Assembly (NCBI GenBank): GCA_013306675.1
Contig: JABLUY010000151.1
Coordinates: 29,425 to 93,424 of the forward strand
Source of the DNA: Thraustochytrium sp. TN22
Taxonomy: Eukaryota > Sar > Bigyra > Thraustochytrida > Thraustochytriidae
Direction: 5' to 3'
Length of the DNA: 64,000 bases
The notes beneath the pieces were generated by a model. It worked only from the letters and a program-made list of their open reading frames with translations, had not been told where the DNA came from and ran no database searches. The translations under genes and the position numbers were made by a program. How positions within the stretch are numbered: position 1 is the stretch's first letter; every line of letters starts with the position of its first letter. Of this stretch, positions 13,556-35,045 are shown in pieces.

Positions 13556-14551
13556 TCACAGTCCGAAGTCGTCGTCCACTTCCATGACGGCATTCTTGAG
13601 GTCAAACTCGTCAAGACTGGCAGCGCCGGCCTGGAGAAAGCCCTCGTCGTTCGGAGTCTTGGTCGCATGGCTCACATCGGGGTCGTGCAGCAGCGAAGAA
13701 GCTTGGGACGTGGCAGCACCGGCCTCGAGGGTATTGGCTGCATCGTTGGCCGCGAAGCTCTCCATCCCAGCCACTTCCAGGTTCTCGTCCACAAAAGCCA
13801 CACCCGGGGTGATCACTGCGGCGAGCGCAGTCGCAAAGACCTGGTCAGCCGACGTCACGACGGGGAAGATCTGCATGAACTGCTGCTTCAGGCTGCTGGC
13901 GTGGTTCCCAAAGTCGATTTCTTCAGCTGGGACACTCTCGTCGAGTGCGCCGCGCATGAAAAAGTACTGCAATTGGTGGGCAGTGCGGCGGTCGTGGTAG
14001 TCGCAGGCGTACCTCTGCATGTCGCGACGCATCCACAGCTTGTCAGGACCCTCCAGATGCGCCGGGAAGCGCACCTTGCTCTTCCATTGGAGCTCCCTGC
14101 AGAAAATCTGCACGGGCACATCCAGGCCGAAGTAGTTGGCCTCCATCGTGAAGCAAATCTTGTCGCCCCGGAGCACGTTCTTCTCGCTGCGATGCAGCCC
14201 GCCACCGTGCATGAATGCACGGACGCTGCCGCCCACGTACTTCAGGCCGAGCGCGAGGACAGCCACGCCGCCCTTTTTCTGTGGGAAGCTCCTGTACCCG
14301 TCCAACTGGAAGGGGTCCAGCCACAGCGTCTGGGTATCGACGGCAACCCACCCGTTGTCGCCGAGCAAGTGGATGCTGGCTGTGAGACCCTGCACGAACA
14401 TGGCTTGGGGAGGCAGCTGGAACTGCGTGACCACGCTGCCGGTGTTGAGGCCGCCCAGCGTGCTTGATTGGTTGGGCTCCACGCGGAAGATGGTGGGGGA
14501 GAGCGGGATGGCGAGCGCGACCTGCGCGACCTGGGCCGTGGGGACGGCCAT
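13556..14551 (-). CDS. Family A paralog 1, unknown function
   Basis: Unrecognised 331-residue protein and member of the local family A. The first ATG is at 14551; the frame opens upstream at a GTG. Residues about 1-170 look beta-rich. Shared family marks are LGGLNTGSVV (near residue 33), KKGGVAVLALGLKYV, FMHGGGLHRSEK, WKSKVRF and YHDRRTAHQLQYFFMRGALDE. After a helical segment ending in ATALAAVITPG, the C-terminal 80 residues are acidic and probably disordered, closing with MEVDDDFGL. No signal peptide or membrane helix is seen. It is on the same strand as the two next paralogs (16735-17682 and 19709-20761). A folded domain plus acidic tail would suit a nuclear regulator, but this is inference. 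Confidence 0.8.
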   Translation of the reverse strand: MAVPTAQVAQVALAIPLSPTIFRVEPNQSSTLGGLNTGSVVTQFQLPPQAMFVQGLTASIHLLGDNGWVAVDTQTLWLDPFQLDGYRSFPQKKGGVAVLALGLKYVGGSVRAFMHGGGLHRSEKNVLRGDKICFTMEANYFGLDVPVQIFCRELQWKSKVRFPAHLEGPDKLWMRRDMQRYACDYHDRRTAHQLQYFFMRGALDESVPAEEIDFGNHASSLKQQFMQIFPVVTSADQVFATALAAVITPGVAFVDENLEVAGMESFAANDAANTLEAGAATSQASSLLHDPDVSHATKTPNDEGFLQAGAASLDEFDLKNAVMEVDDDFGL

Positions 14552-16734
14552 GGTGGTGACGAGCACGAAGCGCGAGGTTAGCTAGGAGAAGGCAAAGGCA
14601 GGTGACGAGCGCGCGTGAGCGCGGCGGCCAGCGCACGCCGCACGTGCGCAGGCAGCCGGGTCCCGGAACGGGGCAGGCGAGAGCGTCAGCGCGCCGCTGC
14701 AAGCGCGGCGGCTAGCGCGCGGCGTCCCGCGCGCGGCGGCCAGCGCGCGCGGTACAGGCACAGGACAGGCAGCAGGGCGGGGGAGGTCGCGCTTCCGTGG
14801 TGGCTTAGGAATCTTCGTCTCGTTGATTGCTGGTCTGCTCGAGCGCTCCCCTGCCCGAGCGCGGCCTTGTCAAACCTTTCACTTTGGGGGCGAGGTTCCC
14901 CTATTCGTAAGCGCAGCGACGACTGCGAAACAACCGGCCAGCGGCGGGACGGTGATGCCCACGCGACGCTGCTCGGCTTCCTCTGTGCTGTGCTCTGTTG
15001 CCTTGCCGTGCCTTGCCGGGCTTTGCCGCACGGCGCGGCGCGGCGCGGCGCCGCCTCGCTCTCGCGCTTTCCAATGCAAGAACTCTCCGCGTTGCGATCG
15101 CGGGGCCGCGCGCGCCTTTGGGCTGCGTGAGCCTGCGTCTAGCCAGACTCGGGCCAGCATGCCGCCCTCCGCCTCCATCCTCCATGCCGCTGAGTTCGTC
15201 CATGCCCCCTGCGCGGCTCGCGAGCCTCCTCGCGAGCCGCCTCGCCTCGCACCTGCGCCTGCCGTGCACCGGCTGCGCCGGCCTGCGCCGCGCGCTCGAG
15301 CTCTGGCGTCGCGCGGCGCCGCCGTCGCAGGGCTCCCGGACACTGGGCCATGCCGCATGCGGCGCCACGGCGTGCGGCACGCGGGAGAGGAAGGCGCGGC
15401 GTCTCGAGGCTGCGACGCAGCAACCTTGCGCCGTTTGAGCTTCCGCGTGGCAAGCCCGGATCTCGCTAGACTCGAGCTCCAGCAGCCGCCCGGCCGCCGC
15501 GAGCGCCAGCCGGGCTACTCACCGGCAGCAGCGTCGCCGAGCTGTGGCCTGAGTGGGGCGGCGAAGATCCGGCCAGGCAGGCTCTGCAGGGAGAGGACAG
15601 AAGTTATCCGCCACCTCGCTGTCATCATCAATGCGGTGCAGTGGCAGTCGCAGTCCGAGGCTCCGTCCAGCTGGACTCCAGCTAGCTTGGGCTCTTCGAA
15701 GTTCGGGGCGGGTTCGTGGAATCCCAGGCGCAGGAGCGGGTTGCGCAGCGCGACAGACACAGGTAGTAGCGAGCAGCCAAGCTTGTGCTCATGGAAACAG
15801 GTCGGGTGGAAGGGCCGGGCTCGCTCACCCCGTCTGGCGCCCCAATGCATCTTGACAGAGGAGCGAAACGCGCTCACGGCTCTCCCAAACGAGGGCCCCG
15901 AGCAAACGCCACTTGCAGGCAGCTCTGCAAGTGGTACCAGAAAGATACCAAGGATTGGTCCGGCACTGGCAGGCGAGCGCTTCGGATCCGTCACCCGTGT
16001 GCGTCTCGTACGAGCGTCCGTGAGCGGGCTGTGAAAAGCGTGCGTCGGTGATGGAGGGGAAAACAACGGAGCCGGCTCTGGTGCGGCGGTGGATCTCTCG
16101 GCATGCGTGAGAGATGGGGTCGGCGATGCACTGTTCGTGTGAGCTACTGCCCTTTTGCGTGGGGTAGGAAACGAGGGCGGGAACCAGTGGCTGGCACTTG
16201 GTTGAGGCTCGCACTCTTCGAGGGCAGCCTGGTTGAGCATTCACACGCGCATCAGGCAGGACACTGTGCTGCACTCTTGGCCGTGCGCTCGGGGCTGTGG
16301 TTGATGATCCTCAAGTGGATCAGCATCGCTGGTCCACAATTCTCAATCTCATTGGCGCCGCGTGACAAATACGTTGGATGGATGCGTGCGCAACGAGTAG
16401 GCTCAAGTGGCGGCGGCAGCGGCAGCCGTCCAGCCGTCAAGCAAGCCCAGGTTGTTCTCGCATCAGCAAACTACCTTGCACAGAATAAATTCGTTCATTC
16501 GAGCGCAAGGTCGTACTCGAAGTTGAGCCCCGGCTTGAGCTGAGCACCTTGATGAATCTTGCCGCACCGTCGCCGGCCACGATGGTTGCAACTTTCAGGC
16601 CGGCGTCGCAGGCGACATGGACGCCAGGACGAAGTTGCCTCGTGAAGGAGCCAGGATCAACATCATCACCATCCAGACAGCGTTACACCACATGCACCTC
16701 CTCAACCTTAGAGAAAACCATGACAGCCCAGTCA
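14552..16734. other. Non-coding spacer between paralogs 1 and 2
   Basis: GC-rich DNA with palindromic cgcgc patches near 14620-14750. A 403-codon plus-strand frame (14823-16034) has Arg/Ala/Pro-rich shadow composition and no domain. I see no gene here. Confidence 0.5.
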
Positions 16735-17682
16735 TCAGTGGCGCTCCTCGTCACAGTCGTCCTTGCTCGTGAGGTTCTCCTTTGCACAGGCGGCGTCGTC
16801 GGCGCAGGGCTCGAGAGGCGGGCTGACCGGCAGGGGTACCGTCCCGAAGTCGGTATCTGCAGCAGGAACGGCGTTGGTCGTGCCAGCGCCCAGGTCCTCG
16901 TTCGCTGCGAGCACAGAATCGGGAAGAGGCAGAGGCTGTCCGATCGGAGCCACCGGAATCATCACAGCAACCATGGCCTCCTGAAGGCTCGTCGCGCCCT
17001 GGTAGCGCTCCATAAAGTGATTGTGCTCGGTGCATGTCGTGTCCTCGAAGTTGATCCCGGCAGCTGGCACGGCCTCGTCCAGCGCGCCGTACATCATAAA
17101 GTGTCGCAACTGATACTCGGTGCGAAGGTCATGGTAGCGGCGGGCATAATTCAGCATGTTGACCCGAGTCTCACGTGGTATGTGCGTCGAGAAGCGCGCC
17201 TTGGACTTCCAGAGGAATGTTGTGGAGAAGATCGGCAGGGGCTGGCCCGTGCCAAAGTCGGCATCAAGCGAGAAGCGCAGCTTGTCACCGTTGACGATCG
17301 TTCTCTCGCTTCGGTGCATGCCACCTCCGTGCATGACAACGCGGGCCCTGCGGCCTTTATCCACGTACGCCAGCGCGAGCGCGAGGACGCAGGCTCCGCC
17401 CTTTTTGCTGAAGGGCTCATTGCACGTCAAAAATAAGGGCACATCCCACTCCTTCTCGTCGGCGGTGACCCATTTGTCGTCTCTAGTGTGCACGTGTATG
17501 CGTGCCGTCAGTTTCTCGACGCAGAAAACACCGCTCGGCAGCTCGAACTCCGCCACCACGCTGCCGGTGTTGAGGCCACCAAACGGCCCCGCCGACTGGT
17601 GCAGCTCAACGCGGTAGATGACCGAGGAGAGCGCGCGAAAGGTATGTACGAGCGACGAGACACCCGATGCGCCGGTGGACAT
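16735..17682 (-). CDS. Family A paralog 2, unknown function
   Basis: Unrecognised 315-residue protein starting at ATG 17682. It shares with paralog 1 the sequence blocks FGGLNTGSVVAEFELP, KKGGACVLALALAYVD, VMHGGGMHRSER, LRFSLDADF, WKSKARF and YARRYHDLRTEYQLRHFM followed by YGALDE. Predicted beta-strands dominate residues 15-190. A helix pair follows, then an acidic Pro/Asp-rich tail that ends in KDDCDEERH. Conservation covers about 240 residues, and the tail is free to vary. A decayed relic of a similar gene lies at about 18975-19190. No known domain is recognised. Conserved Gly, His and Trp positions indicate a maintained fold rather than random ORFs. Confidence 0.8.
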   Translation of the reverse strand: MSTGASGVSSLVHTFRALSSVIYRVELHQSAGPFGGLNTGSVVAEFELPSGVFCVEKLTARIHVHTRDDKWVTADEKEWDVPLFLTCNEPFSKKGGACVLALALAYVDKGRRARVVMHGGGMHRSERTIVNGDKLRFSLDADFGTGQPLPIFSTTFLWKSKARFSTHIPRETRVNMLNYARRYHDLRTEYQLRHFMMYGALDEAVPAAGINFEDTTCTEHNHFMERYQGATSLQEAMVAVMIPVAPIGQPLPLPDSVLAANEDLGAGTTNAVPAADTDFGTVPLPVSPPLEPCADDAACAKENLTSKDDCDEERH

Positions 17683-18974
17683 GATCTGATAGCACCGGGC
17701 AGCAAAGACCAGCTTGTTGGCTTGATTGCTGGCAGGCAGACAGGCAGGCAGGCCGCGAGCGCGCGATGTCAGAGAGGTTGCTTGGCTGGCATGAGTACAG
17801 GCAGCGCTTGATGGCGTTTTGCTTTGCTACGCCAGCCTGCACGCTCCCCCGAGGCAACGCCGGCTCGCTCGCCAGCTTGTGCAGCAGCGTGTGGCCTCCG
17901 CCCTAATCCGTTCTGCTCGCTCAGCTGCCCATCGCGGACCAGGCCAGCGCTGGGAACCGGCGACATGAAGCTGCGCTGCTGCTCCACTGGCTCGTGGCCG
18001 AGGCGTTCCCGCGGGCCGTCTCGAAGGCGGCGCGCGCTCTGCCCGCGCGTCTTGCCTGACTTGGTGTCATGGCGTGTGACGCATGCCCTTGCCCCGTCCG
18101 GCGTGCTCATGGCTTTACGAGCCACACGAGCCACGCTGCGACTGATTCGTGGCGGGGCGGGGTTGACGGCGCGCAGCTGACGCCCGCGCGCCCGCGCCGC
18201 CAGCCCGCCAGCCAGCGCCCTCGCGCCCGCGGGCCGTTCTGGACTGCGATGATGATCGTGGGCAAGATTTCGTTCTCCAAGCCACACCGCTGGCACTGCA
18301 TGCATTGTGTGGGGGCCCTCAGGCTGGCGGAGAATCGCAGGGAGCCTCAGGCTGGCCGTGGCTGCGGCCGAGAGAAGGCAGAACAGGAAGGAGATCGGTG
18401 CTCTGCCTGCCTGCGCGCCAGCGAGGGCGGCTACGTCGCCACAACACGCTCGTCGCGGAACTTGCAACTTCACGAACCATGATGCTGGTCATGGTCATGG
18501 CCAGGCCAACGTGGAGATCGCGGGCTGAGAACCACCGAGAACCCCAGAGAATATCGCGGAGAACGGGTTAGCGCGGTGCGCCCATCATGTCGTCTCAGAG
18601 GCTCGTCGTCGCGCTTCGCAGGGAGACTGAGTCTCTCTTCACGCGGGTTTCGAGCGTGAACTGGCCCAGCAGAGCTGGCTTCGGCTGTGCGCTGCGGCGA
18701 AAGCATCGATCGCATCATGGGCCTCGTGGAGGGCCTGACGAGCTCTGACGACGCCATTCACGCGGTTGTAGTGGTCTGCGGCCGTGTGGGTTCTGCAAGA
18801 GCGCAGTTTGAGTTCGATGCCGCCCGCCAAGCGCTTGCACTGTGGACCGGCCAGCAGCCGCGTCCTCAGGACGAGCAATACCTGTCGTGAAGATCCGGTC
18901 CAGCGTGCCGTGCCTGGGCCTACTTTTTCAAAGACACGTGAACGAGAATGCACGGTGGAGAACTCGTGCCAGCG
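17683..18974. other. Non-coding spacer
   Basis: Contains short aggc-type repeats (17735-17755) just upstream of paralog 2. ORFs here are shadows with no domain. Nothing else is recognised. Confidence 0.45.
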
Positions 18975-19190
18975 ACGCGCAGAGATCGGGAGGTGTTACG
19001 GCGTAGTCGGAGGTCCCAGGGCCCGTCAAGTGGCACAGGAAGCGCAATTAAGACCTCCATGCTGAAGATCAGCACCGACTGACTGGGTAGGGTGGAAGTC
19101 CGCATCCAAGGAGAAGCGAAGGCATTTTGGGCTTGGCTTCATTGCATTATGTGCCGCTCTGCAGTGTACGTCGCACGCACCCAGTCTGCT
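18975..19190 (-). pseudogene. Decayed family A relic
   Basis: On the minus strand, 19122-19096 encodes LRFSLDADF, identical to the block in paralog 2, and the surrounding bases align with 17100-17340 with many substitutions and indels. The adjacent patch gaagatcagcaccgact corresponds to gaagatcggcaggggct in paralog 2. Reading frames are broken on both sides of the motif, and no start or full domain survives. This looks like a dead copy from an older tandem duplication. Confidence 0.6.
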
Positions 19191-19708
19191 CGCGCGCCTA
19201 GCCTGCACAAGAGGCGACCGCGTCAAGGCTCGAATCAGCTTGACATGTCGCGTCACGGTCACTTGCGAAGCAGTCACCGCAGCCACCGCCGCCGCGCTCG
19301 ACGCGGACCCATCATTCACGCTGGGGCCCTGTCAGCTGCGCGAGCTGGTGGGCAAAGAGCGATCGCGCCGGGCAGGTTTGCAAAACTGTGGCCGTCTTGT
19401 CTGCCAAGCACTGATCGGGAGCACAACGGCGGCGCACGTCAGAGGTGCCCTCAGGCTGAGGCCTGCGACGCGGATGGCCGCGCCTTTGATGCAGCCCACC
19501 CGCACCATCCGCTTTGGGACTTCACTCCCTGCATACGACGTGGCTTGAGAGTGAGGCACCTCCAGCTAGTCTCAATCGACCGCGTGAAACTGAAGAAAAC
19601 ATGTTTACAGGAAGGAGTGCTTGTGCGTACTTGCGTGCTGCGGGGCATTGATCATTGCAGAGTATCTCGATCACCAGCATGTCGCGGCGTGCTGGGTTGG
19701 CTCAAAGC
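19191..19708. other. Non-coding spacer
   Basis: About 520 bp between the relic and paralog 3. No domain-bearing frame and no clear repeat are seen. Confidence 0.45.
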
Positions 19709-20761
19709 CTATTGGTCATTCGAAAGCAACTCTGCGATCTCCTTCAGCGCCTCGATGTCGTCGTTGTCGATTTCCATTGGATGAGTTGGATTGAAGACGT
19801 CGGTCGGCTCAAACGGTTCGAGGTTCATGATATTGAAGTCCTCGGGGATGCTCTGGCTGGCGTCGAAGAGGGGCTCGAGCACGTTAAGGCCAATGTCTGG
19901 GCCGTCCGGCGTGTTCGTGTGGGGGGCAACGTCCATTTCATCGTCTGCAACCTCCGCGCAGGGGTTGATAATCGCGGCGAGGACCACGCTTAGAGCGCGC
20001 GTCGGGTTCTGCACGCCAGGAAAGCACGCCAGAAACTCATCGTGCAGAACGCAAGCCGTGTCCTGAATATTGATGTCGTCGCCGGGTGGGACTTTCTCGT
20101 CCAGGAAGCCATGGGCCATGAAGTACTGCAGCTGGTACTCGGTGCGAAGGTCGTGGTAGCGGCGGGCATAGACCCGCATCTTCTTCCGGGTCTCCTTGAG
20201 CTCCCCGCCTCCCAGATGCCTTTTGAAGCGCAGCTTGGACTTCCACGGGAAGTTCTCGGTGAAGATCGGCACGAAGCCCCCGCCGAAGGATGCCTCCAGC
20301 GAGAAGTACAGCCTGTCGCTGCTGTACGAGGTTGACTTCTTGAGATGCATGCCGCCACCGTGCATGGCTACCCGTGCGGTGTTGTCGTCCACGTACTTGA
20401 CGATCATTCCCAAGACCGTTGCCCCAATGCGCTTGGGAAAGTCCTGCGAGCACGCCTGGCCCGGTCCGGGTGCCCACCTTCTCTCATCAGCGATCGTCGG
20501 CGTGGGCACCGTGCCGTCCTGCCAGGGCCTCTCCGCCGTCACGACCGGCGTTTCCTTTGGGAAGCTGTAGATGCGCGCGATCAGCTCCTTGATACGCTGA
20601 GGCCGTCCGTCCGGGCCGCGCGGCAACGCCACCTGGGCCGCGACCGATGTGCTGTTCAAGCCGCCCAAGACGTGCACCTGGTTCGTCTCGTCGCTGTATA
20701 AGTGCCGCGAGAGCGGGACGACGTGCGCATGGAGTACTGGAGCCACTTCGGCAGCGCTCAT
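19709..20761 (-). CDS. Family A paralog 3, unknown function
   Basis: Unrecognised 350-residue protein starting at ATG 20761. Family blocks: LGGLNSTSVAAQVALP, KRIGATVLGMIVKYVDD, AMHGGGMHLKKS, LYFSLEASF, WKSKLRFKRH and YARRYHDLRTEYQLQYFM, then AHGFLDE. It has a longer loop than paralog 2 between the first and second blocks (TPTIADERRWAPGPG). The C-terminal 90 residues are strongly acidic with hydrophobic spacing (FNIMNLEPFEPTDVF, then DDIEALKEIAELLSNDQ), a composition often seen in transcription activation regions. A 57-bp tandem repeat begins 40 bp upstream of the ATG. Family membership is secure by sequence; the biochemical role is not known. Confidence 0.8.
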   Translation of the reverse strand: MSAAEVAPVLHAHVVPLSRHLYSDETNQVHVLGGLNSTSVAAQVALPRGPDGRPQRIKELIARIYSFPKETPVVTAERPWQDGTVPTPTIADERRWAPGPGQACSQDFPKRIGATVLGMIVKYVDDNTARVAMHGGGMHLKKSTSYSSDRLYFSLEASFGGGFVPIFTENFPWKSKLRFKRHLGGGELKETRKKMRVYARRYHDLRTEYQLQYFMAHGFLDEKVPPGDDINIQDTACVLHDEFLACFPGVQNPTRALSVVLAAIINPCAEVADDEMDVAPHTNTPDGPDIGLNVLEPLFDASQSIPEDFNIMNLEPFEPTDVFNPTHPMEIDNDDIEALKEIAELLSNDQ

Positions 20762-20800
20762 GATGGCGTGCGGCAGCGAGACGAGCTACTCGGGCAGCTA

Positions 20801-20914
20801 GGCTTAGCGAGGCTTGTTTTCCGTGCGAGACAAGGCTTGGTCACCGCGCGAGACGAAGGCTTAGCGAGGCTTGTTTCCCGTGTGAGACGAAGGCTTGCTC
20901 GCCGCGCGAGACGA
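20801..20914. repeat. 57-bp tandem repeat upstream of paralog 3
   Basis: Two units (20801-20857 and 20858-20914) begin with ggcttagcgaggcttgttt and end near cgcgcgagacgaa; they differ at a few bases. A degenerate gaggcttgcttc-like part follows. Position and orientation suggest the promoter or 5' UTR of the gene starting at 20761. Confidence 0.85.
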
Positions 20915-22626
20915 GGATTGCTTCACGAGGCTTTGCTTCACGAGGCAGACTCGCGCGCCAGGTGGCTCGCGGTGGGAGTCGCGAGCGTGCCTGTCGCCCC
21001 GCCACGGGCCGGGGTCGCGCGCCTCCAGCTCCGCCTCAGGCCGGGGTCGCGCGCCTCGCTCGACTGGACGTGCGCTTGGTCGCGGCTGCGGAGAGTTCGG
21101 GTTCTGCGGTCTGGCCTTGCCGCGCCCACGGAATGCGCGCGGTGAAGAAGAGCGGCGGTCTTTCATCGCTCGCTCGATCAGGATCGCTCGCCCTCGTCGT
21201 CCCGGCCAGCTGGACGGAGGGATTCCTGCGCAGGCGGGCGTCTCACTGGCGACTTGCTGTTCTCGTCGGTAGCTCGTACTACCTCGAAGCGCTAGCCGCC
21301 ACGCCTCGCGCCAGCGCGGCGGCAGGCACGGGCCAGCAGGCCGGCAGGCGTAGCGCCCGCCCCTGCGCGGGCGTCAGGCTCGGCGCGGCGCGGCGAGGCG
21401 CTCGCCTCCTCCTGTCCTGCGCAGCCTGCCCGCGCTCGCTCCTCATCCGCGGAAATCGCATCCCGCGCGCCGCCGCGCCGCCGCCGCCGCCGCCGCAGAG
21501 GAGACTCTGCGCGCGCGTCCTGTCCTGCGCGCGCGCGCGCCAACACTGCCGCCCGCGGCCGACTCCCGCGCGCGCGCTGGGCCGGGCCGCCGCGGCCGCA
21601 GCCGGCAGCCCGGCCAGGTTTGGTTGGACTCACAACAACTGTTGGCTGCGACTCGACTCGGCTCCAACGGCAGGAAGAGCGCCGCGCCGCGACCAAGAGG
21701 GAAAAATCCGCACGTGCGCGGGCCATGCATCAGGCATGAACTGTGGCCCGGCCCGTGAGGGCCAGAGTCGAGAGCCCCGCGGCTGGGAGCCGAGCCGCCG
21801 AGCCCGCGCGGCGGCGAAGGGCTTGCGCTAGGAGGGACACCGAGGGAGGCGTGGGTTGGAAGACTGGGCCGCGGGTCGCCAGCCTGCGCGACGGCAGGAC
21901 GTCACGCACGGCCGCACCGCCGAGGGCTTGCAAAATCGCGCCTCGTGGAGCTGGCATGAGGTCCGGCGGGCGGCCTGGGGCAAGCTCAGGCTGGCTGGGC
22001 CGAAGCAGGCTGGATCGAGCGGTCGGAGTCACGCGTGATCGACGCGGCGACCTGAGCTGCGCTCGTCAACCCGGCTGCGCGGTCCCATCAGCCTGTTTAG
22101 CTGAGGCTTTGCGATCCATGCCACAGCGCCGTCATGAACGAAGCTCGCATCGCCCGAGCCGCGCGAGCGAGCGCACCGGCGTGGGTCCGGATGGGTCCGG
22201 ATGGGTCCGGATGGGTCCGGCGGCCACGGAGCCGATCAGTCGCGGCTGCGCTGGGCCAGCAAAACCCCAGCTTGACTCATGACAGTGAAGGACTAACGTT
22301 AGGCCTAGGACGGCGCGTTGGCGCTCGAATGGACCAAACTTACAGCGCGTGGAGAGTTGGCCGCTGGCCAGTGGGCCGCCCTGGCGTGTCCTGGCCGGCA
22401 GTAACGAGCGGCACTGGCAGCAGCCAGCTTCAGCGCGCTCCAGCTGTAGCTGGTAGCCGGCTAGAGCTAGCTAGCGATCGACGAAGCAAGACAAGCCCAA
22501 CAAGCCGCAGATGGGCCGGCCCTGGCGGCCTGGCCCAGCAAACACTCTGCCGTGGCCGCACGATCGATCCAAGCGCGCTGGAACTTGCTGGTGGCAGGCA
22601 GCAGGTTGATTGACAGCGAGCGGGCG

Positions 22627-22710
22627 TCGCGCGAGCGAGCGGGCGGGCGGGCGGGCGGGCGGGCGGGCGGGCGGGCGGGCGAGCGGGCGGGCGAGCGGGC
22701 GGGCGAGACG
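22627..22710. repeat. (gggc)n tetranucleotide array
   Basis: Roughly 20 units of gggc, interrupted by gagc variants toward the right end. Strand-asymmetric G runs could form G-quadruplexes on the plus strand. Confidence 0.9.
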
Positions 22711-23261
22711 CAAGCGAGCAGGCGTTGGAACGACGGACCTACCGCAGAATGCTGTGCGCCAGAGTGGTGCCAGGAGTCATGATGTGGCCAGTCGCCACCT
22801 CCGTTGTCTCTCGACATTTCTGCGCGTTTTGTCTTTCACGCCGTCGCGCGCGCCTCGTCCGAAAGCGCGCAGCGTGAGGGCGACAAGACCGGGCCTGACT
22901 CCCCTATCCACCCCGAGAAGTTCGCGAGAACACCATGGCTCTCTCTACCTCGCTCTACCTCAGAAGGTGGTGGGGGTACCGGGTGAGTGCCCGTTGTAGA
23001 ACCGGCGCGGAAAGGCTTCAACGCGCCTCGACAGCGTTGCGTCAAGTTGCCCAATCGGCACTTGGGCCGAAAAAGCAGGGTAACCCGCGACGGACAGGCC
23101 GCTCACCACTTGCAGCTCGCCCGCCTCGAGGCTCGCGATGGCTCGTCACCAATACCACTTCGTGGGCCGGCCGCGAGGCGCTCCCGCCGCGCTCCCGCCG
23201 CCGGATTTCGCCGCTCAGGCGCAAACAATCCGCCAAGCGCTTGGCCGCCAAGCAGCAGGCT

Positions 23262-23340
23262 AGCCCGGCCCGGCCCGGCCCGGCCCGGCCCGACCCGGCG
23301 CGGCGCGACGCGGCGCGGCGCGGCGCGGCGCGCCTCGGAG
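23262..23340. repeat. cccgg/gcgcg pentanucleotide run
   Basis: About seven cccgg units pass into gcggc and gcgac units. The run is of very high GC content. Confidence 0.8.
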
Positions 23341-26053: not shown

Positions 26054-26539
26054 ATGGATCTTTGGCCATTTCGAGCCCCAGCTTCCGGGCCGCCGGGCCA
26101 ACTGCAGCCCGCCTGCCAGCGCGCCACACGCCAGCGCCCCACGCGCCCGCCCGGCGCGCAGACTGCGCAGGCGCACGCAGCTGTCTCGAAGACAGTCCCG
26201 GAGCCTGGGCCTGCCAGTGCTGTGACGAGCTTGGCCGGGCTTGACAGTGACGCCGCGCTCGCGCGAGCTGCTGCCGCCGAGCGCCGCGAGCCTGGTCTGC
26301 CAGATTTCCAGGCCGCGAGGTTCGCCAGGACGTTGAGCAGGAACTTCAAGTCGAACCGGACGCTGGCGGCGCCGGTGGCTTCCTTCTTCAAGTTCCTCGG
26401 CTTCCTGCCCAGCTGGCTCCGGCGGGGCTCGGACGTCCGCCGGATCTCGTTTGACTTCGCTAACTTACAGTTAGTTTTAAAAACTCAGACTCCTCAAGCC
26501 GAAGAGTCGAAGACCGAGCCCAGGCCTAGTAGGCCCTAG
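26054..26539 (+). CDS. Weak candidate ORF, unknown
   Basis: A 161-codon frame from ATG 26054. The first half is Pro/Arg/Gln-rich and shadow-like. The second half (SRNFKSNRTLAAPVASFFKF, then RRISFDFANLQLVLKT) is less biased. No domain, signal peptide or neighbour supports it, so it is listed only because the region is otherwise empty. Confidence 0.15.
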   Translation: MDLWPFRAPASGPPGQLQPACQRATRQRPTRPPGAQTAQAHAAVSKTVPEPGPASAVTSLAGLDSDAALARAAAAERREPGLPDFQAARFARTLSRNFKSNRTLAAPVASFFKFLGFLPSWLRRGSDVRRISFDFANLQLVLKTQTPQAEESKTEPRPSRP

Positions 26540-27283
26540 TTGCAGAGTGGCACGCGCCGCGAGAGGGATCTTTTTCTTTTATAATTCGCTCCGAGTCGCG
26601 CCCGTGGTTGCGGCCGTCCGTGGCCGGAGCGCGCTTGCGGTTCGCGCGGCAGAGAAAGCTCGAGGACTGATTGCGCGCTCGAGCTTCCAGCCTGGCCTTA
26701 CGCAATCGATCTACGGAATGGGCCTCGCGTCGAGGTTGACGCGAGCTGGCTGGGCCAGTTCGTCGCCATCCCGCAGCGCGCCCGCAGCGTCCCCCTGAGC
26801 GCGGACGAGGGCTCCCGCAGCGCAGGGGGCGCGCCAGGCCAGGACCCCAGTGGGGTCTGGGGCCAAGTGGGCTTTGGCGCGCGCAAGTGGCCGCTCCGCG
26901 CTGGCGCCAGTGGCCGCTCGCCAGCGGCAAGTGGGGGAGCGCTCGCGGGAGAGCGGAACCCAATTTTGCTGTGGGCGCGGCGCCCTCGGGAGCCCGACTT
27001 CAGGAGCTTTGCGACGGCAAGGAGCACGTCGGAGTGCAGCAAACCCGAATCGATAGAGACTCAGGCCTCAGACGGTGCTCGAGTCGAGCAAGACATCCAT
27101 CGCAACGAACCAGCGGCAGCAACCGGTCCTGGTCCCGGTCTCGGTCGGTCGGCGTCGTGTGTGCGCCGGGCATCGTGCAGCCGCGTGTTCGGATCTTGAC
27201 TGTGAGTGAGAGAGAAGCCCTACTAGGTCCTAGCCTGAGCTACTACTAGCGTGCGTGCCGGCGTCTCCTACGAATCGAAGATC

Positions 27284-28456
27284 ATGGCGCTCGCGATGCC
27301 GGTCACCGAGGACGAGACCTTCAAGACGCGGCCGCCGATCCGCGCGATGGCGGCGGCGCGGCGCAGTTACGGGGTGCGCTACCAGCGCACGCTGGCGCCG
27401 GCGCAGTACCGCGAAGAGAACCACCAGGCGACGCGTGGCGGCCTGGGCGGGCTCAACGCGAACGGACTGGTGTGCGAGGCGATCGTGCCCGAGGATGCAA
27501 GCGGCATGCCGCTGCGCATCCACAAGCTGACGGCTCGGCTGAGCGCGCGCCAGGACGACGGCGAGGTGCGCTTCCTGCATGAAGTGTCGCTCAACGCGTA
27601 CACCAAGATGCGGGAGTACCCCAAGCACAATCGCCACGCGGTCATCATGGCCTTCGCCTGGAGGTACGTGGACAGCTACCGCCGTCGCGTGCGTATCGTT
27701 CTGCACGAGGGCGGTCTGCACCGCTCGGGCGTGAATGAGTTCACGGGCCACACGCTGGTCATCGAGGTCTTCGCGGATCACAACGATGGCCGCGGGCCCA
27801 TCCCGGTCTGCACGCAGGACATCCGCTGGGAGTCCAAGAAGAACTTCAGCAGGGCGTTCAAGCCGCTGGCCAAGAGCTGGCAGAAGCTCGCGCAGCGCTG
27901 CGCTGACCAGCGTGCTCTGCAACAGTACGCCTACTTCATGAACCACGGCACCATGGACCCGGCCAACAGCGTGCCAGACTTCAGGTACATCCAGGACCAC
28001 TACGAGGACCTCCTCGCCGCCATCCCCCCCGAGGGCCAGGACTCAGCCAATACCTTTGTTAGCGTGCTCGCTGCGGTGGCTGGTGGCGCGGCCCAAGCTG
28101 ACACCGACGAGGTGGCGGCCGTCGACGACACGGACGCACCCACCGACCCTGACATCGTCGTCGGCGGCAAGCGCCCCTTGCCCAAAAACTGTATCGACCT
28201 CGGGCCTCGGCGCACGCCCAAGCCTGCCTCGAACCCGACCGTCTCGCGCTTTGGTACTACCATGCCGCATCGCTGGTTTGACGACCTGTTCGGCGACCTC
28301 GAAATGATGGACGATCCTGCCGACTGGGACTTGTCGCCCGGCGAACTGCCCCAGACGAGTGGCCCCGATAGCTACTTCAACATCGGTGGACTGACTGCCA
28401 TCAGTGACGCTGAGCGCGACAGCTGTGGCACTGACAGCGCGTCCGACATTTTTTAA
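27284..28456 (+). CDS. Family A paralog 4, unknown function
   Basis: Unrecognised 390-residue protein; the first ATG is at 27284 (upstream in-frame GTG at 27251). It is the only family A member here on the plus strand. Family marks: LGGLNANGLVCEAIVPEDAS, HKLTARLSARQ, HAVIMAFAWRYVD, VLHEGGLHRSG (Glu replaces the first Gly of HGGG), IRWESKKNFSRAF and a helix LQQYAYFMNHGTMD. The N-terminus is longer and basic (KTRPPIRAMAAARRSYGVRY). The tail is acidic and carries FDDLFGDLEMMDDPADWDL, an acidic/aromatic pattern reminiscent of activation domains. It is more diverged than paralogs 1-3 but alignable across the whole domain. Confidence 0.8.
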   Translation: MALAMPVTEDETFKTRPPIRAMAAARRSYGVRYQRTLAPAQYREENHQATRGGLGGLNANGLVCEAIVPEDASGMPLRIHKLTARLSARQDDGEVRFLHEVSLNAYTKMREYPKHNRHAVIMAFAWRYVDSYRRRVRIVLHEGGLHRSGVNEFTGHTLVIEVFADHNDGRGPIPVCTQDIRWESKKNFSRAFKPLAKSWQKLAQRCADQRALQQYAYFMNHGTMDPANSVPDFRYIQDHYEDLLAAIPPEGQDSANTFVSVLAAVAGGAAQADTDEVAAVDDTDAPTDPDIVVGGKRPLPKNCIDLGPRRTPKPASNPTVSRFGTTMPHRWFDDLFGDLEMMDDPADWDLSPGELPQTSGPDSYFNIGGLTAISDAERDSCGTDSASDIF

Positions 28457-29043
28457 GCTCGCGGGCGCGGCCTTCTTCTCCGGGCGCCACGTCCCATCCT
28501 GTAAATACACCATGTAAACAACGGGCTTGACCGTAGAAGAATGAATAGCGACCATACAACAAAACCAACAAATCTTTATTTCCTTTATCCCAATCACACC
28601 TCTATGCTTACTCGTATCCGCCTACCACGCGGGGGTCCCTCGGTGACGCCCGGCACAGGGGGCACTAAAGCGTATTAAGAGGGTACTTTACTCCCGATTT
28701 GCTCCAAAAAAGTGGCCTAGAGTCTGGCGAAGTTAGTTCCGCATTCGATCAAAAACGCAGCGATGGGGCCGAGCTTGAAGAGGCCCACTCGAAGCGACCC
28801 AAGGCTCCTGCCCCCTATTCATTTTGGCCGAAGGCGTGGTGGTTAGGATGAGATGAGCTCGGCAGTTCGCCCAGAGCGGCTTTGGGGGGAGCTCGCGCGC
28901 GACTTCGTCGCGGAGCGCGCTGGAGCCGCAGGCGCTGCGGCGCGCGGCTGCAGGCGGCCCTGGCGGGTGCCTTGTGCCTGCTCTCAGCTCGCACGCCCCT
29001 GCCGCAGCGCTTGGACGTGGAGTCGGGCCCGCACTGCGACATC
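28457..29043. other. Spacer, lower GC, possible left flank of a transposon
   Basis: Contains the 3' flank of paralog 4 and, from about 28560, a clearly less GC-rich stretch. TTAA occurs at about 28675, the target used by piggyBac elements, but I could not pair it with a matching terminal repeat on the other side. Confidence 0.4.
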
Positions 29044-30719
29044 ATGGCATCGGCGAGGCCTAACCACCGCGTGGAGGACGACAGCGACAGCGACAGCGAC
29101 AGCGAGTTCGTGCCCCTGGACAAGCGGGACACAGGGGACGAAGACGAAGAAGGAGAGGAGCTTGGCGACGAGGATGCTCGTGCTGAGGCCGCTGCGCAGC
29201 AAGACTTCGAAGACATACTTGCGTTGGTCGACGAACCGACGCGTGGTGCGAGTGCATGTTCGAGGTCGGCCTCATTCAGCACAAGACCGTTCCGGGGCTC
29301 GCAGTCTCGCCGGATGGAGTCGCTCGCGTCCGGCTTCCAGGCGCGGAGTGCGACGCATCGTCAGTACTATGCAGCGTCGAGATCAAGACGCGCGTCGCGC
29401 CTGGAGGCGCGGTAGACGCACGTATCGTGAGCACCCAGATGAACACGTGGGGGACGAGACTTGGTGGAAGGCCATACCTGCCGAGCACCGCGCGCAAGTC
29501 TTGCACCAAGCTGTGGTCCTCCAAATCGATCACGTGCTCTACGTTGCTGCCAGCACGAGTTCGTGTTTGTACGCCTGCCTCGTTGAAGTGCCTCCGGACG
29601 CCCGGCTCGCCATGGAGCGCGCTCTGAAACCGTGGGCGGACAAGCTCACGACATGGGCGCACCAGAGCATCGACAGCGGGTGCGCCGCCCAAGCCACCTG
29701 CCATCTTCGGCGAGGAGGAGGGGGCGGTGCTGAGCTCGCACTTCCGGCTGTGGCGCGCCATGCGCAAGCTTGTCGCTCTGAAGGGGCCCATGCGGCCCGT
29801 GCATGTCATCAAGTGCTTACCGCAGGAGCTATACAACGTCGCAAAGGGCGGCGTCGACGGAAGCACACAGTACGTGGAGCAGATCACCAACACGCAGTGC
29901 ATGAATCTGAGCTGCGACCAGAACATCGCGTTGCGCACGTACAAGCAGCTCGTTGTCAACGCCATCGTGGTCTACCGCTACTTACAGGCTGCGAGGAAGA
30001 GCAACCTCGAAGACAGCGACGGGCTAAAGGCCCTCCGCGACAAGGTGAACCGCTCTGAAGCGCTCAGCACTGTCTCGTTCCGCCTCACTGTCGACATGGT
30101 CCGTCACGTCTACAGGAGCAGGCAGCTCGATACGGCGCAGGTGGAGTTCAACATGCAGCCAAGCATGCCCAAGCCCACTGGGCTCACCAGGGAAGCGGCG
30201 AGGGACCTCGTGACCGCCGGTAAGCGCAAGCGAACCCCCGAGTTGCAGAAGTTCTTCAACCACGGCCATGCCCGCGACATCCGCCTCGATGCCGCGCTGC
30301 ACCATGACTCAGAGGCAGCGGGAAAGGCATCCTTCAACGCCAACAACAAGAGGATTCCCGCCAAGCGGCTCTGCGTCATCTGCGGCAAGCAAACGCACCG
30401 TCGTTGCACCATCTGCGGTGTGCCTCTGCACGTGTTCATGAGAAAGAATGAACGCACAACCTGCTTTTCCAAGTGGCACACGCGCGTGCGCGTCGAGCCT
30501 CACGAAGGCTTCAAGAAGCGCAAGACAAACGTCAACGGAACACCTTCGCCCATTTGCCTCGATCATGTCGATTCGAGCAGCGCCAGTGCCTCGTCCGGTA
30601 CCCCTACAGCGCAGAGCAGGAACGACCACGTAGCCCAAGCCAGCTACACCGACACCCCATCAAGCCATAGTTCAAGATCCTCTCGCAGCAGCCTCAGCAC
30701 GAGTCCATCGTGCCCTTGA
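29044..30719 (+). pseudogene. Broken YqaJ-nuclease/piggyBac-like transposon protein
   Basis: Three frames together resemble one transposon protein. ATG 29044 opens an acidic N-terminus (DDSDSDSDSEFVPLDK). After a break near 29250, another frame reads MFEVGLIQHKTVPGLAVSPD and then LCSVEIKT, the core of YqaJ-type exonucleases. After a break near 29430, a third frame reads WWKAIPAEHRAQVLHQAVVL, still YqaJ-like. From about 29680 the second frame returns and stays open to 30719. It carries a piggyBac-like region, ELYNVAKGGVDGSTQYVEQ with an Asn/Ala-rich helix after it, and a C-terminal Cys cluster LCVICGKQTHRRCTICGVPL followed by CFSKWHT, the typical piggyBac zinc-binding pattern. The first two piggyBac catalytic Asp regions are not seen. 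The breaks could be indels or, less likely, small introns. Confidence 0.65.
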
Positions 30720-31151
30720 TGCAGCCCAAGTTGGCCTCAGCATCCGCACAGGCCAGTCGGAAGTGACCAACACTTTACGCTTCCATACAAACCCAGTAGT
30801 TGAAAGTTCCAAAAATGATTAGAATCATGATAGCAACAGGTCAGTCGAGCGCAAGCAGGAGAGCCGATTTACTAGGGATAATATGGCTATCCTGATTAAA
30901 CTCCGTCTAGGGCGATGGGATTGGGTTATTGCCCATGGCTCAAGGTGTGCGCGGCCGGCGGGCTTGCTTGCAGTCGTGGTGTCGATGGCCCTGCCTGCCT
31001 GGCTGTGCTTGAAAAGAAAGAAAAAAAACAATAGACGCCTCCTCCTGATAGTGGGGGTCTTTGGCTCCTGCCTCGGCGAGTCGGTCGTTCAGGCCGTTTT
31101 GTTCGTCCCGTCCAGGGACGCCGAGTCGCCGAATCACTGTCATGAATCGGG
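30720..31151. other. Spacer with AT-rich patch
   Basis: About 430 bp with relatively low GC, including ggataatatggctatcc, a short inverted repeat at about 30878-30894, and a TTAA right after it. It may mark the right edge of the YqaJ/piggyBac element, but no target-site pair was established. Confidence 0.4.
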
Positions 31152-32354
31152 CTAGGGGCTTCGCAGAAAGAAGTCGAGCAGCTCGCCATCCTTGCTGCTG
31201 AAGTGGACGGCGACGTTGTCGGCCAGCGGCTCCAAGGGGGGGGACGTGGCGGAGTTGCTCGACTCGAGAGTCATATAAGAAAGGCGCATATCGGAGGGGG
31301 GTGGTGCGTCCTCGCAGTTGGCCACCTCAGGGTTGGCGGGCAGAGTCACCGTGCCCTGGTTCGTAATGAGCCCGTTCACGTCGGTGCGACCTGCCGCGGT
31401 GCCCTGGCCAGAAGCGCTCACGAGATGATGTTCGCCATCCATGCCACCCGTGCCATTCTGCGCGAACTCGTTGAGAAAACGGTTGCACAGGTCTTCGAGG
31501 TGATCGTTGGGGTTGGGTACGTTCTCGCAAATGTCCTTCTTCTTGTCCAACCACGCTGCCTTGATGCAATCGTACTTGCGAAGGTCGCTCGTCGACTCCT
31601 TGTACGCGGGGCCTTGGGCAAGAAACTTCTCCATCTCCTTTGAAGCGTGGCTGTCGTGAAGCTTGCGCAGTTGCTCCTGGTAATCTTTGGCGGACTTGCC
31701 TTCGATCTTGCCCGCGAACCTGCGGTCGTTGTGCTTGCCATGCCAGTCTACAACATCCTCTGCGGTGACGCTGGGAAATCCCATGACGGCGACCTGAAGG
31801 CAGACCCTGAGCTTCTTGGCGATTATGTCCACCGGGTGGGACCGGTCCTCGGCGGCAGCCTCGCCGACCTCACTGTCCGGGCACTTCCGCTTGCGCTTCC
31901 CGGGACAGGCCGTCCTGGGCTTGCGCGTGTTGCCCTGCCGGATAATCATCCACAGCTGATTCTGGACCAGACGGCACAGGATCGCCAGCGTCTGCACGTG
32001 AGGTCCGAGCGAACCGCGCGCCGGCTCCGCAAAGGTTTTGAACATGATGTCGCTCTCGAAGCGCAGGTCGTCCAGGCCCAACTCAGCGATATGCAGGTTG
32101 TCCTCGGAGTCGCCGGCCCGCAGCATCACGGTCACCGAGTCAAGCACGCGGCCCGCCGGCACGTCCACGACGGCGAAGTGCGAGTTCACGTTGGTCCCGC
32201 TCGTCTTGCGCGCCTCGCACCGCTGGTTCACCTCTTGCTGGCACTGATACTCGCTCGTCTTGCCCACGAACTTCACCTTGACCGCCTGGTCCGCCGCGCC
32301 GCGCGTCTCACGGTCGACCGGCGTCTCGTCGCGCAGCGCCAGGGTCTCGGCCAT
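31152..32354 (-). CDS. Family A paralog 5 (diverged), unknown function
   Basis: Unrecognised 400-residue protein from ATG 32354 (the frame opens upstream at a GTG in GC-rich DNA). Similarity to paralogs 1-4 is weak but collinear: TNVNSHFAVVDVPAGRVLDS against the GGLNTGSVV block, LCRLVQNQLWMIIRQG against the HGGG strand, KKLRVCLQVAV against LRFSLDADF, and YQEQLRKLHDSHASKEMEKF against the YHD helix. It has an inserted basic segment with KRKRKCPDSE, a possible nuclear localisation signal. The tail again is acidic/hydrophobic (DGELLDFFLRSP). I place it in family A as a diverged member; the alignment was made by eye. Confidence 0.65.
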   Translation of the reverse strand: MAETLALRDETPVDRETRGAADQAVKVKFVGKTSEYQCQQEVNQRCEARKTSGTNVNSHFAVVDVPAGRVLDSVTVMLRAGDSEDNLHIAELGLDDLRFESDIMFKTFAEPARGSLGPHVQTLAILCRLVQNQLWMIIRQGNTRKPRTACPGKRKRKCPDSEVGEAAAEDRSHPVDIIAKKLRVCLQVAVMGFPSVTAEDVVDWHGKHNDRRFAGKIEGKSAKDYQEQLRKLHDSHASKEMEKFLAQGPAYKESTSDLRKYDCIKAAWLDKKKDICENVPNPNDHLEDLCNRFLNEFAQNGTGGMDGEHHLVSASGQGTAAGRTDVNGLITNQGTVTLPANPEVANCEDAPPPSDMRLSYMTLESSNSATSPPLEPLADNVAVHFSSKDGELLDFFLRSP

Positions 32355-32519
32355 GACGCCCGCTGGTGGTGGCGCCGGGCTCCCGGTTCCTGCCGCGTGT
32401 GTCCTCGCCGCGCGGCGCCGCTTCCGCAGCCCTTCTCCGCGCGCTGTGACTTCAACCACCGCGGCGCGCTGGCCGCGCTAGGCCGAGCGGCGCTGCTGCG
32501 CTCCTGCGCGCGGCGCGGC

Positions 32520-32770
32520 GGGGGCTCCTGCGCGCGCGCGCGCGCGCCCGCCCGCTCGCTCGGGCGCGCGAGCAGCGCGACGTTGCCGCGCGAGGCCAGC
32601 GCGGCGCGATGCGCGATGCCACGGGCCGCGCTGGGCCGCGCGGCGCTCCTCCGCTCTGCGCGCGGCGCGGCGCTCCTGCTCGCGCGCGGCGCGCGCGCGG
32701 CGCGCGCGGCGCGCGCGCGGCGCGCGCGCGCGGGCGGGCGCGGCGGCTCGCTCGCTCGCTCGCTCGCCGA
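32520..32770. repeat. Alternating gc/cg and ctcg low-complexity tract
   Basis: Long runs of alternating G and C plus a ctcg tetranucleotide run. It lies 170-420 bp upstream of paralog 5's start. Alternating CG is a Z-DNA-prone sequence. Confidence 0.85.
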
Positions 32771-32835
32771 CGCGACCCTGTCTGCTGGGCGAGGGATGCT
32801 CTCTATCTTTGGGGCTGCTTCGTGTAGTTCGAGGT

Positions 32836-32950
32836 TTGTTTGTTCGAATCTCTGCTTGCGCCGCAAGTTGCGCGCGCGCCGGAGTTTGTTCGATTCTCTA
32901 CTTGCGGCGCCTTGCGCCCGGCGCGCCGCAAGTTGCGCGCGCGCCGGAGA
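32836..32950. repeat. Diverged tandem duplicate, two copies
   Basis: Copies start with tttgttcgaatctctgcttg and tttgttcgattctctacttg and both end with gcaagttgcgcgcgcgccgg. The second copy is about 15 bp longer. Confidence 0.75.
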
Positions 32951-33147
32951 AGCGAAACTTCTGACTGCTGCCAGTGGCGGAGAACAACAATGTCGCTTGG
33001 GCGGCTGGGCACCGGCGGCGACGGCGCGCGGCCTCGCGCGGCGGCAGCGCGCGCGGAGGCGGCCGCGCTCGGGCGCCCCGGGGCAGCGCGCGTTGACCGC
33101 GATTGCGAGGGGATGCACTGGCAGCGTGCGGGTCGGAAAACCTGACG

Positions 33148-33195
33148 TTAGCTAGCTAGCTAGCTAGCTCTAGCGAGCGAGCGAGCGAGCGAGCC
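33148..33195. repeat. gcta and gcga microsatellites
   Basis: About five gcta units are followed closely by about six gcga units. Confidence 0.85.
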
Positions 33196-33890
33196 TGAGT
33201 CAGCGGGCCGGAGCGGCGTCTCTGGAGACCCGCCCGACCTGGTCCGGTGACGAATCGCGCGGCGCCTGCTTGCGCCCCTTTTGCGCGCCCGGCCGCGCGT
33301 GTGCACGAAGCGGGAGGCGCCAAGGGCTCGCGCGAGCGCAGCAGGGCAGGGCAGCACGCCGCGAGTGGTGCGGGAAGGTGCAGAGTCAGCCAGAGGACTT
33401 TGATTTTTTTTTTGTTGTAGGTCAAAATCGAGCCACCGCAGCAAGCCGCGCACCGGGGGCGCGGTGAACCTGCGGTCTTCTAGCAGCGCGCGTCCGCTTC
33501 CTGCGCCGGGTTGCTCAGCGAAGCGAGCAGGCTCGGGCGGTACCTCACAGAGGCTCACAGGAGGCCCCGAGGGCCCCGATGGTGGTAGGGTACCCCTTGG
33601 CGAGCCGAGGGTGCTCGTTGTGGAGACCCGAGGATGCCCGTCGTGGAGAGCCCTTCGGAAGGTGCCCGTCGTGCGCATGTCCGAGTCGCGGCGAGTCCAT
33701 GCCGAGGATGCAGGCTGGGCCGTTCCACAGGCTGCCCATGGCGGGGGATGGCGGGGACTAGCAGCACTGGCAGGTGCTCTGTATCCCCTTATCCGAGTCG
33801 CTCGATGGGTGAGCACAGCTGTGCCGTGCATTGCCGCGCCGCAGAGGCTTCGTGAGCGGCACCAGGGCCGGGCGAAGCTTGGCAGTCAGT

Positions 33891-34769
33891 TCAGAGCACG
33901 GCGTGGCCTGGGCCACCCGGCGAGGATGCGACGGCCTGCGCGTCCGCGGAGCAGTAGCGCCCGGGGTCTGCGTCAAGACTGGCGAGGAAGGCGCTGATGT
34001 TGGCCTGGATCGGGCTAGGGAGCGGCGCGGCGCCGGGCAGCGACAAGACGCCGCCGGCTCGGTTGACGTCGTCGAGCGTGTTGATCAGGTTGTATATGCG
34101 GGTGGCGTAGGCGTTCGGATCGGCGCGCATGCTGGCCGAGTCTCCGTGGCGGCGGACCTCGCGAGTGAGGCCGTCGATGTCGCCCCAAAAGGGCTCGCAG
34201 GTCGCGGCCGTGGCCGCGTGCTGCGCCCACCTGGCTGGATCAAGAAAGAGTTGACGGCGCGTGTCGCGGTGATAGCTGTTGAGGAGGGCGGCGATGCGCA
34301 GCGAGTCCGGGTCGTGGCCGCCTCTGTAGTCGATGCAGCGGACCGTGCTGTCCTCGCCAGCCACACAGGCCGCGGCGGCGTCTGCAGCGAGGCGTGCGGC
34401 GCAGTCCTCTCCCTCGCAGCGCACCTTGACGGAGAGGTGCAGGCGGCGGCTGGACATGGCGGCGGCGTCAGCAGCTCTGGTGTCGCCATTGTTGACAGCG
34501 GCGACAGCAGCGGCGGTGGGTAAGCCCCGGCCCTGCACGTCGGCAAAGGACGCGTCGCCAAGCCCGCGCTCACCCGCGCGAATGACCAGGCGCGCGCCGG
34601 TGTCGGTGCGAAGCGCGCAAATGCAGAGCACGGCGAGGTCCGGCCCGCGCGAGGGCGCTTGCCACAAGTGGCCCGGGCCGCCGCGCAGCAGGTCCTTGAG
34701 CAGCACGCAGATGGCCTGCGCGAGCAGTCGCGGGCCGTCGTCCAGCTGCTGTTGTTGCTGTTGTTGTTG

Positions 34770-34811
<42 letters not shown>

Positions 34812-35045
34812 CTGGACGCCATGGTCGTCCTGATTGTATGGACGCTGCTGGGAGGGCGCCTCTGAGAGCTCGACCCGCAGCGTGGCACACGGCGGCAGCT
34901 CCGCCGCGTCCTGCAGGTCGACGTGGTATTCGGTAAGCCCAAAGGACCGCGCCGTGGCCGGCGTGCCGTGGTATCGCGTAGTGGAGGAGGTGCCGCAAAA
35001 GCCCACGCGCGCAGCGTGCAGCGGACAGCCGCCCCTTGTTGCCAT
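33891..35045 (-). CDS. Possible family A paralog 6 with poly-Gln tract
   Basis: Unrecognised 384-residue protein; the first in-frame ATG is at 35045. After an N-terminal segment (FGLTEYHVDLQDAAELPPCA) comes a run of about 21 Gln encoded by a CAG/CAA mixture (34740-34810). The core has LAVLCICALRTDTGARLVIR, then RRLHLSVKVRCEG, and a helix LLNSYHRDTRRQLF. These can be lined up with the HGGG strand, the LRFSLDADF strand and the YHD-x-RT-xx-Q helix of family A, but similarity is marginal. Three Cys (CEGEDC, AACVAGEDSTVRC) are not shared with the others. Position and strand next to paralog 5 favour family membership; an unrelated gene is possible. The C-terminus lacks the strong acidic tail. Confidence 0.5.

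What the first reader, a model, noticed from the sequence alone, without database searches (positions are those of the whole stretch)
13556..35045. Expanded cluster of an unrecognised protein family (family A)
Six genes (13556-14551, 16735-17682, 19709-20761, 27284-28456, 31152-32354, 33891-35045) and one relic share collinear blocks: a GGLN-type block, a VMHGGG-HRSE strand, LRFSLDADF, W-x-SK and a YHDLRT-xx-QLQ helix. I know no family with this combination. Local expansion with different strands, spacing and degrees of divergence suggests repeated duplication and fast evolution, as for lineage-specific regulators or conflict-related proteins.
Basis: partly seen in the sequence, partly recalled or inferred. 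Interest (0 to 1): 0.78.

Follow-up and report, generated by a model that had tools for sequence, protein, structure and literature searches.

The report
Clustered orphan protein family in protist
A protist genome carries one tight cluster of at least five related, intact genes for a protein family with no detectable relatives in the databases searched; each looks like a compact beta-sandwich with a helix and an acidic tail, perhaps a lineage-specific gene regulator.

Summary
Four of the six named genes (13556-14551 -, 16735-17682 -, 19709-20761 -, 27284-28456 +) are clearly one family. The fifth (31152-32354 -) is a very divergent, collinear member. The sixth (33891-35045 -) looks coding but is not a member: its score is within its own shuffles. 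The 'relic' is a short frameshifted fragment at 19018-19121 (-). Single-protein searches of the whole 37.9-Mb genome found no other convincing copy. Pfam, PHROGs, NCBIfam, PADLOC, PDB sequences, viral and prokaryotic contigs, phages and plasmids gave nothing convincing (not every query against every collection). The genome looks like a heterotrophic, thraustochytrid-like protist (inferred). Two AlphaFold models give an 8- or 9-strand immunoglobulin-like beta-sandwich, then a long helix; the acidic tail is modelled with very low confidence. No solved fold matches firmly: p53 entries filled 33 of the 50 rows shown for one model, none for the other. My velvet idea failed by sequence. Most likely reading, unproven: nuclear, DNA-contacting regulators working like Rel/velvet/p53-type factors, multiplied by local duplication. 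'Conflict-related' has no support here. Eukaryotic genomes could not be searched, so 'new' means absent from these collections.

The parts
13556..14551 (-). family A member 1 (P1, 331 aa); beta-sandwich and helices about 13787-14518, acidic tail downstream
16735..17682 (-). family A member 2 (P2, 315 aa)
19709..20761 (-). family A member 3 (P3, 350 aa); bipartite-NLS-like pattern from residue 180
27284..28456 (+). family A member 4 (P4, 390 aa), 27-29% identical to P1-P3 in the domain
31152..32354 (-). family A member 5 (P5, 400 aa), very divergent; HGGG-HRS block lost, KRKRK run at residues 153-157
19018..19121 (-). relic: exact LRFSLDADF, then a frame change and W-R-S-stop-L-R-F matching the last-strand region

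Best explanation
Family A is a cluster of at least five paralogous, apparently single-exon genes. Each makes a protein with an immunoglobulin-like beta-sandwich that runs into a long helix (together about 230 residues in P1-P4), then a weakly conserved acidic tail. SHOWN: homology of P1-P4, weaker collinear homology of P5, coding signature, no copy elsewhere found by single-protein search, no recognised domain. PREDICTED at low to medium confidence: the fold. INFERRED: the proteins act in the nucleus as DNA- or chromatin-contacting regulators. Conserved loops at one end of the sandwich (E-x-x-Q..GGLN; H-x-GG-x-H; W-x-SK-x-x-F before the helix) would touch the target, as loops do in Rel/velvet/p53-type factors; the helix (D-x-R...Q...F) would pack or dimerise; the acidic tail would recruit partners. 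Copies arose by local duplication and then diverged.
For: Family. Architecture: two models with different first sequences (but largely the same small alignment, so not independent), both a sandwich followed by a helix of about 30 residues. Of 31 invariant positions among P1-P4, 13 lie in loops between strands or just after the last one; 12 of these 13 fall on one end if strands alternate in direction (52 of 74 loop residues are on that end; P = 0.07, only suggestive), and the loop before the helix is basic (14 K/R against 2 D/E, summed over four members). Tails are acidic (net -9 to -21), domains near neutral (net 0 to +6). No membrane-like stretch (maximum 19-residue hydropathy 1.54 in P1-P5); nuclear-signal-like patterns in P3 and P5. 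Entries naming p53 or p73 fill 33 of the 50 PDB rows shown for the P2 model. In velvet VosA the strand 1-2 loop binds DNA and another loop precedes the C-terminal helix (passages of PMC3876986), the positions of two of family A's conserved loops.
Against: Models are low to medium (mean pLDDT 53.9 and 64.9; pTM 0.56 and 0.65; the first strand is under 50 in both). Foldseek matches are weak (best E 3.7e-4 and 2.3e-4, most near 1e-3; query TM 0.30 or less). p53 has very many PDB entries, so 33 rows are one family counted often. The domain-only model lists no p53 entry among its 50 rows; CTLA-4 and Asf1 entries are prominent instead. The strand 1-2 loop has few basic residues (3 K/R, 6 D/E over four members), unlike VosA, where the loop before the helix has a minor role if any. 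Velvet profile comparison is at chance (P 0.33-0.42). At least one acidic-hydrophobic cluster occurs in 204-348 of 500 shuffles of P1-P5, and in P2 and P5 the real clusters lie outside the tail. P1 and P2 match no simple nuclear-signal pattern and P4 only a short basic run. No word of 8-10 bases is shared by the 500-base upstream regions of P1-P4. The alternating-strand argument is not checked on coordinates, which were not available.
Confidence: 0.36

Rival explanations
1. Protein-binding sandwich with an acidic tail, for instance a histone-chaperone-like (Asf1-type) or cytosolic adaptor protein, not DNA-binding.
For: Asf1 is named in 10 of the 50 row titles shown for the domain model (titles name the entry, not always the chain). 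Acidic tails and a near-neutral domain. Strand 1-2 loop not basic.
Against: Ig-like folds match one another easily: CTLA-4 is named in 12 row titles of the same list. No convincing sequence match to a solved chain. Several diverging paralogues are unusual for a histone chaperone (recalled).
Confidence: 0.25
2. Conflict-related or self-recognition proteins that diversify after local duplication.
For: Clustered copies, a relic, 19-45% domain identity; mobile-element-like genes in the same region.
Against: No PADLOC hit at E 1 (that library is of prokaryotic defence). No hypervariable region or positive selection was shown. A mobile element lying beside the genes is little surprise in a genome with more than 100 copies of it.
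Confidence: 0.14
3. Genes of viral or mobile-element origin.
For: Apparently single-exon genes beside a young high-copy element.
Against: No relative in viral contigs, phages (P2) or plasmids (P3). One locus only, by single-protein search. Codon signature like that of the window's genes. BFVD fold matches weak and mixed.
Confidence: 0.08
4. Beta-sandwich with another role (enzyme, ligand- or metal-binding), given the conserved H-x-GG-x-H and the helix Asp/Arg.
For: H104, G106, G107, H109, D176 and R178 (numbering of the P1 domain) are invariant in P1-P4.
Against: No convincing enzyme or metal-binding family hit; P5 has lost both histidines in the alignment.
Confidence: 0.17

Closest known systems
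Velvet-domain regulators (PF11754; VosA, VelB, VeA)
   Same: By eye: Q...GG loop near strands 1 and 2; G-D-x-L-x-FSL strand; F-x-x-x-SK-x-x-F before a helix; beta-sandwich plus helices.
   Different: Profile comparison with VosA/VelB/VeA at chance (P 0.33-0.42); no Pfam velvet hit; strand 1-2 loop not basic.
p53/p73 DNA-binding domain and p53-like superfamily
   Same: Ig-like sandwich then helix; 33 of the 50 PDB rows shown for the P2 model.
   Different: Query TM 0.24 or less for those rows; none among the 50 rows for the domain model; no sequence match.
Asf1 histone chaperone
   Same: Ig-like core; acidic tail (recalled for yeast Asf1).
   Different: Family A has a long conserved helix after the sandwich; no sequence match.

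Membership tests
Velvet (PF11754) | significant match to the velvet profile | tested here: not met
   Pfam scans: none; hhalign against three velvet chains P 0.33-0.42. The own-genome PF11754 search also found none, but its control rang nowhere.
Velvet (PF11754) | basic strand 1-2 loop that binds DNA (K37/K39/R41/K42 in VosA) | tested here: not met
   3 K/R against 6 D/E in that loop over four members; VosA residues from PMC3876986 passages
Velvet (PF11754) | seven-stranded sandwich with two helices, most similar to NF-kB p50 | tested here: inconclusive
   Predicted sandwich plus helices; no velvet or Rel entry among the 50 rows shown of 1824 and 1776 matches; 'pdb_via' not available
p53-like DNA-binding fold | reproducible structural match | tested here: inconclusive
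   33 of 50 rows shown, 0 of 50
p53-like DNA-binding fold | sequence match to PDB chains or a Pfam p53-like family | tested here: not met
   NDT80/PhoG in the own genome none, control silent
Sequence-specific transcription factor (what it works like) | binds DNA | not testable with these tools
   needs EMSA or SELEX
Asf1 | Asf1 sequence family | tested here: not met
   no Asf1 family among the Pfam hits
Family A | membership of P5 | tested here: met
   hhalign E 8.8e-5, 0 of 300 shuffles, first of the 62 window frames that are not P1-P4; weaker with the domain-only profile (E 0.0068)
Family A | membership of P6 | tested here: not met
   146 of 300 and 60 of 300 shuffles reach its score

The most novel reading that the evidence does not exclude
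Family A is a previously undescribed class of Ig-fold (Rel/velvet/p53-type) DNA-binding transcription factors in a stramenopile protist, too diverged for the profiles tried to find, and multiplied at one locus into a set of regulators.
Probability: 0.25. Interest if true: 0.62.

Novelty: new variant of a known kind. Interest (0 to 1): 0.4.

Why it matters
If these are sandwich-type DNA-binding proteins, they would add a class of eukaryotic transcription factors outside animals, fungi and amoebae (range recalled, not checked), and the cluster would offer a small, testable case of regulator duplication. If not, it is still a coherent orphan family with five intact copies and one relic, worth a family entry once relatives are found. 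As it stands it is one more lineage-limited family of unknown function.

Tried and rejected
P6 as a member: rejected by shuffles. Velvet: raised by eye from the GDxLRFSL...F-x-x-x-SK pattern, rejected as membership. NDT80/PhoG in the own genome: none, but the control rang nowhere, so it says little. Shared word upstream of P1-P4: 4 seven-base words against a control mean of 4.0 (90 of 200 controls reach it), none of 8 to 10 bases. Acidic activation-type clusters: at least one is present in 204-348 of 500 shuffles of P1-P5. Tree of the five: no supported fork, long branches. FMN-binding-protein hits of the profile (12 chains, E 1.6-1.9) and ribosomal eS7 hits of P5 (13 chains, E 0.36 or worse): taken as chance. 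PHROGs: phrog_37241 for P5 at E 0.047 and phrog_32672 for P4 at E 0.61, both unknown function, left aside. PH_8 (P3), DUF3022 (P4) and Nup188_N (P5): far under their cut-offs, one protein each. P6 gave TFIIA (E 0.0072), Spt20_SEP, DUF7456 and Med3, all under cut-off, and five PDB chains (best E 0.018); most of these lie on or beside its glutamine run, DUF7456 does not. DNA repeats (20 of 21 families shown): those shared by P1-P3 lie inside the genes; no shared spacer was seen. Paper searches showed 15 of 26, 12 of 426, 12 of 2466, 5 of 5 and 8 of 2050 listings, none naming such a family; only passages of PMC3876986 were read. Metagenome contigs: cap 0, not searched. One more genome-contig scan was allowed and not used. 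P1 was never used alone as a query against a collection or the own genome; P2 alone was not used on viral contigs.

Full report
What was checked. The six frames translate as stated. Each shows the codon signature learned from six other genes of the window. P1-P4 align over the whole domain, with blastp E 4e-18 to 3e-52 in all six pairs (search space of six proteins) and 27-45% domain identity. Shared blocks are E-x-x-Q...GGLN, Y-V, R-x-x-x-H-x-GG-x-H, an invariant A, W-x-SK-x-x-F and A....D-x-R...Q...F...G..D. P5 keeps the order of blocks but only some residues (G-x-N, W-x-x-K, D, F, G). The profile finds it at E 0.021 among 1223 window frames, hhalign at E 8.8e-5, and no listed shuffle reaches it. 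Part of that signal comes from the tail: with the domain-only profile hhalign falls to prob 5.6, E 0.0068, still 0 of 300 shuffles. P6 behaves like its own shuffles and is dropped. The relic lies between P2 and P3.

Copy number and spread. Own-genome searches with P2 (limit E 0.001), P4 and the P3 domain (limit E 10) return the four clear members and nothing else at E 0.001 or better; two matches outside the window, E 0.105 and 0.206, were left aside. P5 finds only itself at E 1. P6 finds itself and 21 other matches (best E 2.8e-5), all overlapping residues 74-99 of its glutamine-run stretch. The genome was searched by single proteins only, since alignment queries are not accepted for it, and the tool scores only its best candidates, so distant copies like P5 elsewhere cannot be excluded. 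No relative appears in viral contigs (82 pattern matches for the profile, then 3, 2 and 1 for P3, P4 and P5, none confirmed), genome contigs (142, none confirmed), phages (P2 only) or plasmids (P3 only). No eukaryotic collection is at hand, so absence outside this genome is not shown.

Organism. The assembly has 37.9 Mb in 453 contigs. It gave no chlorophyll-binding protein (the control rang in one cyanobacterium). It has two strong PfaD-type domains (E 6e-200 and 7e-198) in frames of 2083 and 1719 aa, and two weak ones under the cut-off; I recall the strong pair as the PUFA-synthase B and C subunits of thraustochytrids. A heterotrophic thraustochytrid-like stramenopile is therefore likely; this is inference.

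Fold. The full P2 model with four sequences has mean pLDDT 53.9 and pTM 0.56, with 8 strands; blocks holding most strands score 75-84, the first strand under 50, the last 75 residues 31 or less. The P1 domain model with five sequences has mean pLDDT 64.9 and pTM 0.65, with 9 strands. Both give a beta-sandwich followed by a helix of about 30 residues and shorter helices; they differ by a short extra strand and small N-terminal helices, and they share most of their small alignment. PDB matches are weak for both: one search has p53/p73 named in 33 of the 50 rows shown; one search has none, with CTLA-4 named in 12 row titles and Asf1 in 10. The safe statement is an immunoglobulin-like sandwich of uncertain superfamily. 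The viral library gave mixed weak matches (best E 4.1e-4).

Mechanism. Among 31 invariant positions of P1-P4, 10 lie in strands, 13 in loops between strands or after the last one, 5 in the long helix and 3 beyond it. If consecutive strands alternate in direction, 12 of the 13 loop positions lie at one end (P = 0.07), and the basic W-x-SK-x-x-F loop is there. This resembles the DNA-facing end of Rel, velvet and p53 domains; in VosA the strand 1-2 loop was shown by mutation to bind DNA, while the loop before the C-terminal helix has a minor part if any (PMC3876986 passages). Against it, the family's strand 1-2 loop is not basic, and the p53 match is not reproduced by the second model. Tails are acidic, but activation-like clusters are no more than composition often gives. 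I put the DNA-contacting regulator at 0.36.

History. Members on the same strand (P1, P2, relic, P3) lie within 7.2 kb, with P1-P2 and P2-P3 about 3.1 kb apart start to start; P1-P2 and P2-P3 are the most alike (45 and 44%, P1-P3 37%); P4 (other strand) and P5 are further away and more diverged. The DNA repeats shared by P1-P3 lie inside the genes. This fits old local duplications with long divergence under selection for open frames. A rate claim is not possible: the tree has no supported fork and very long branches.

Verdict. A real, locally confined family of five plus a relic, without a convincing match in the libraries searched, with a predicted but not firmly assigned fold and unknown function. 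Moderate interest.

Noticed in passing
29727-30719 (+), between P4 and P5: Protein of 330 aa with a Cys-rich C-terminus (by eye) has 122 matches in the own genome; 115, the window's included, are full length at 97-100% identity, several in steps of about 2.3 kb or in inverted pairs about 380 bases apart: looks like a young, high-copy mobile element. The frame just upstream (about 29256-29627) looks YqaJ-nuclease-like by eye; no Pfam hit at 0.01 for either.
   Followed up: partly
40458-43988 (+): 1176-aa frame, hAT-transposase-like by eye (no Pfam hit at 0.01), with five other near full-length copies at 92-94% identity.
   Followed up: partly
33891-35045 (-): The rejected sixth gene: coding by codon use, with a glutamine run encoded by about 21 copies of a trinucleotide (34745-34808), an orphan with no domain hit above cut-off.
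   Followed up: partly
12837-13295: Tandem duplication of a 224-base unit (94% matches) that starts at the 3' end of a 2OG-Fe(II) oxygenase gene (prolyl-hydroxylase-like by eye).
   Followed up: no
52559-53956 (+): Protein with a possible AP2 domain, 22.1 bits, under Pfam's 33.3 cut-off.
   Followed up: no
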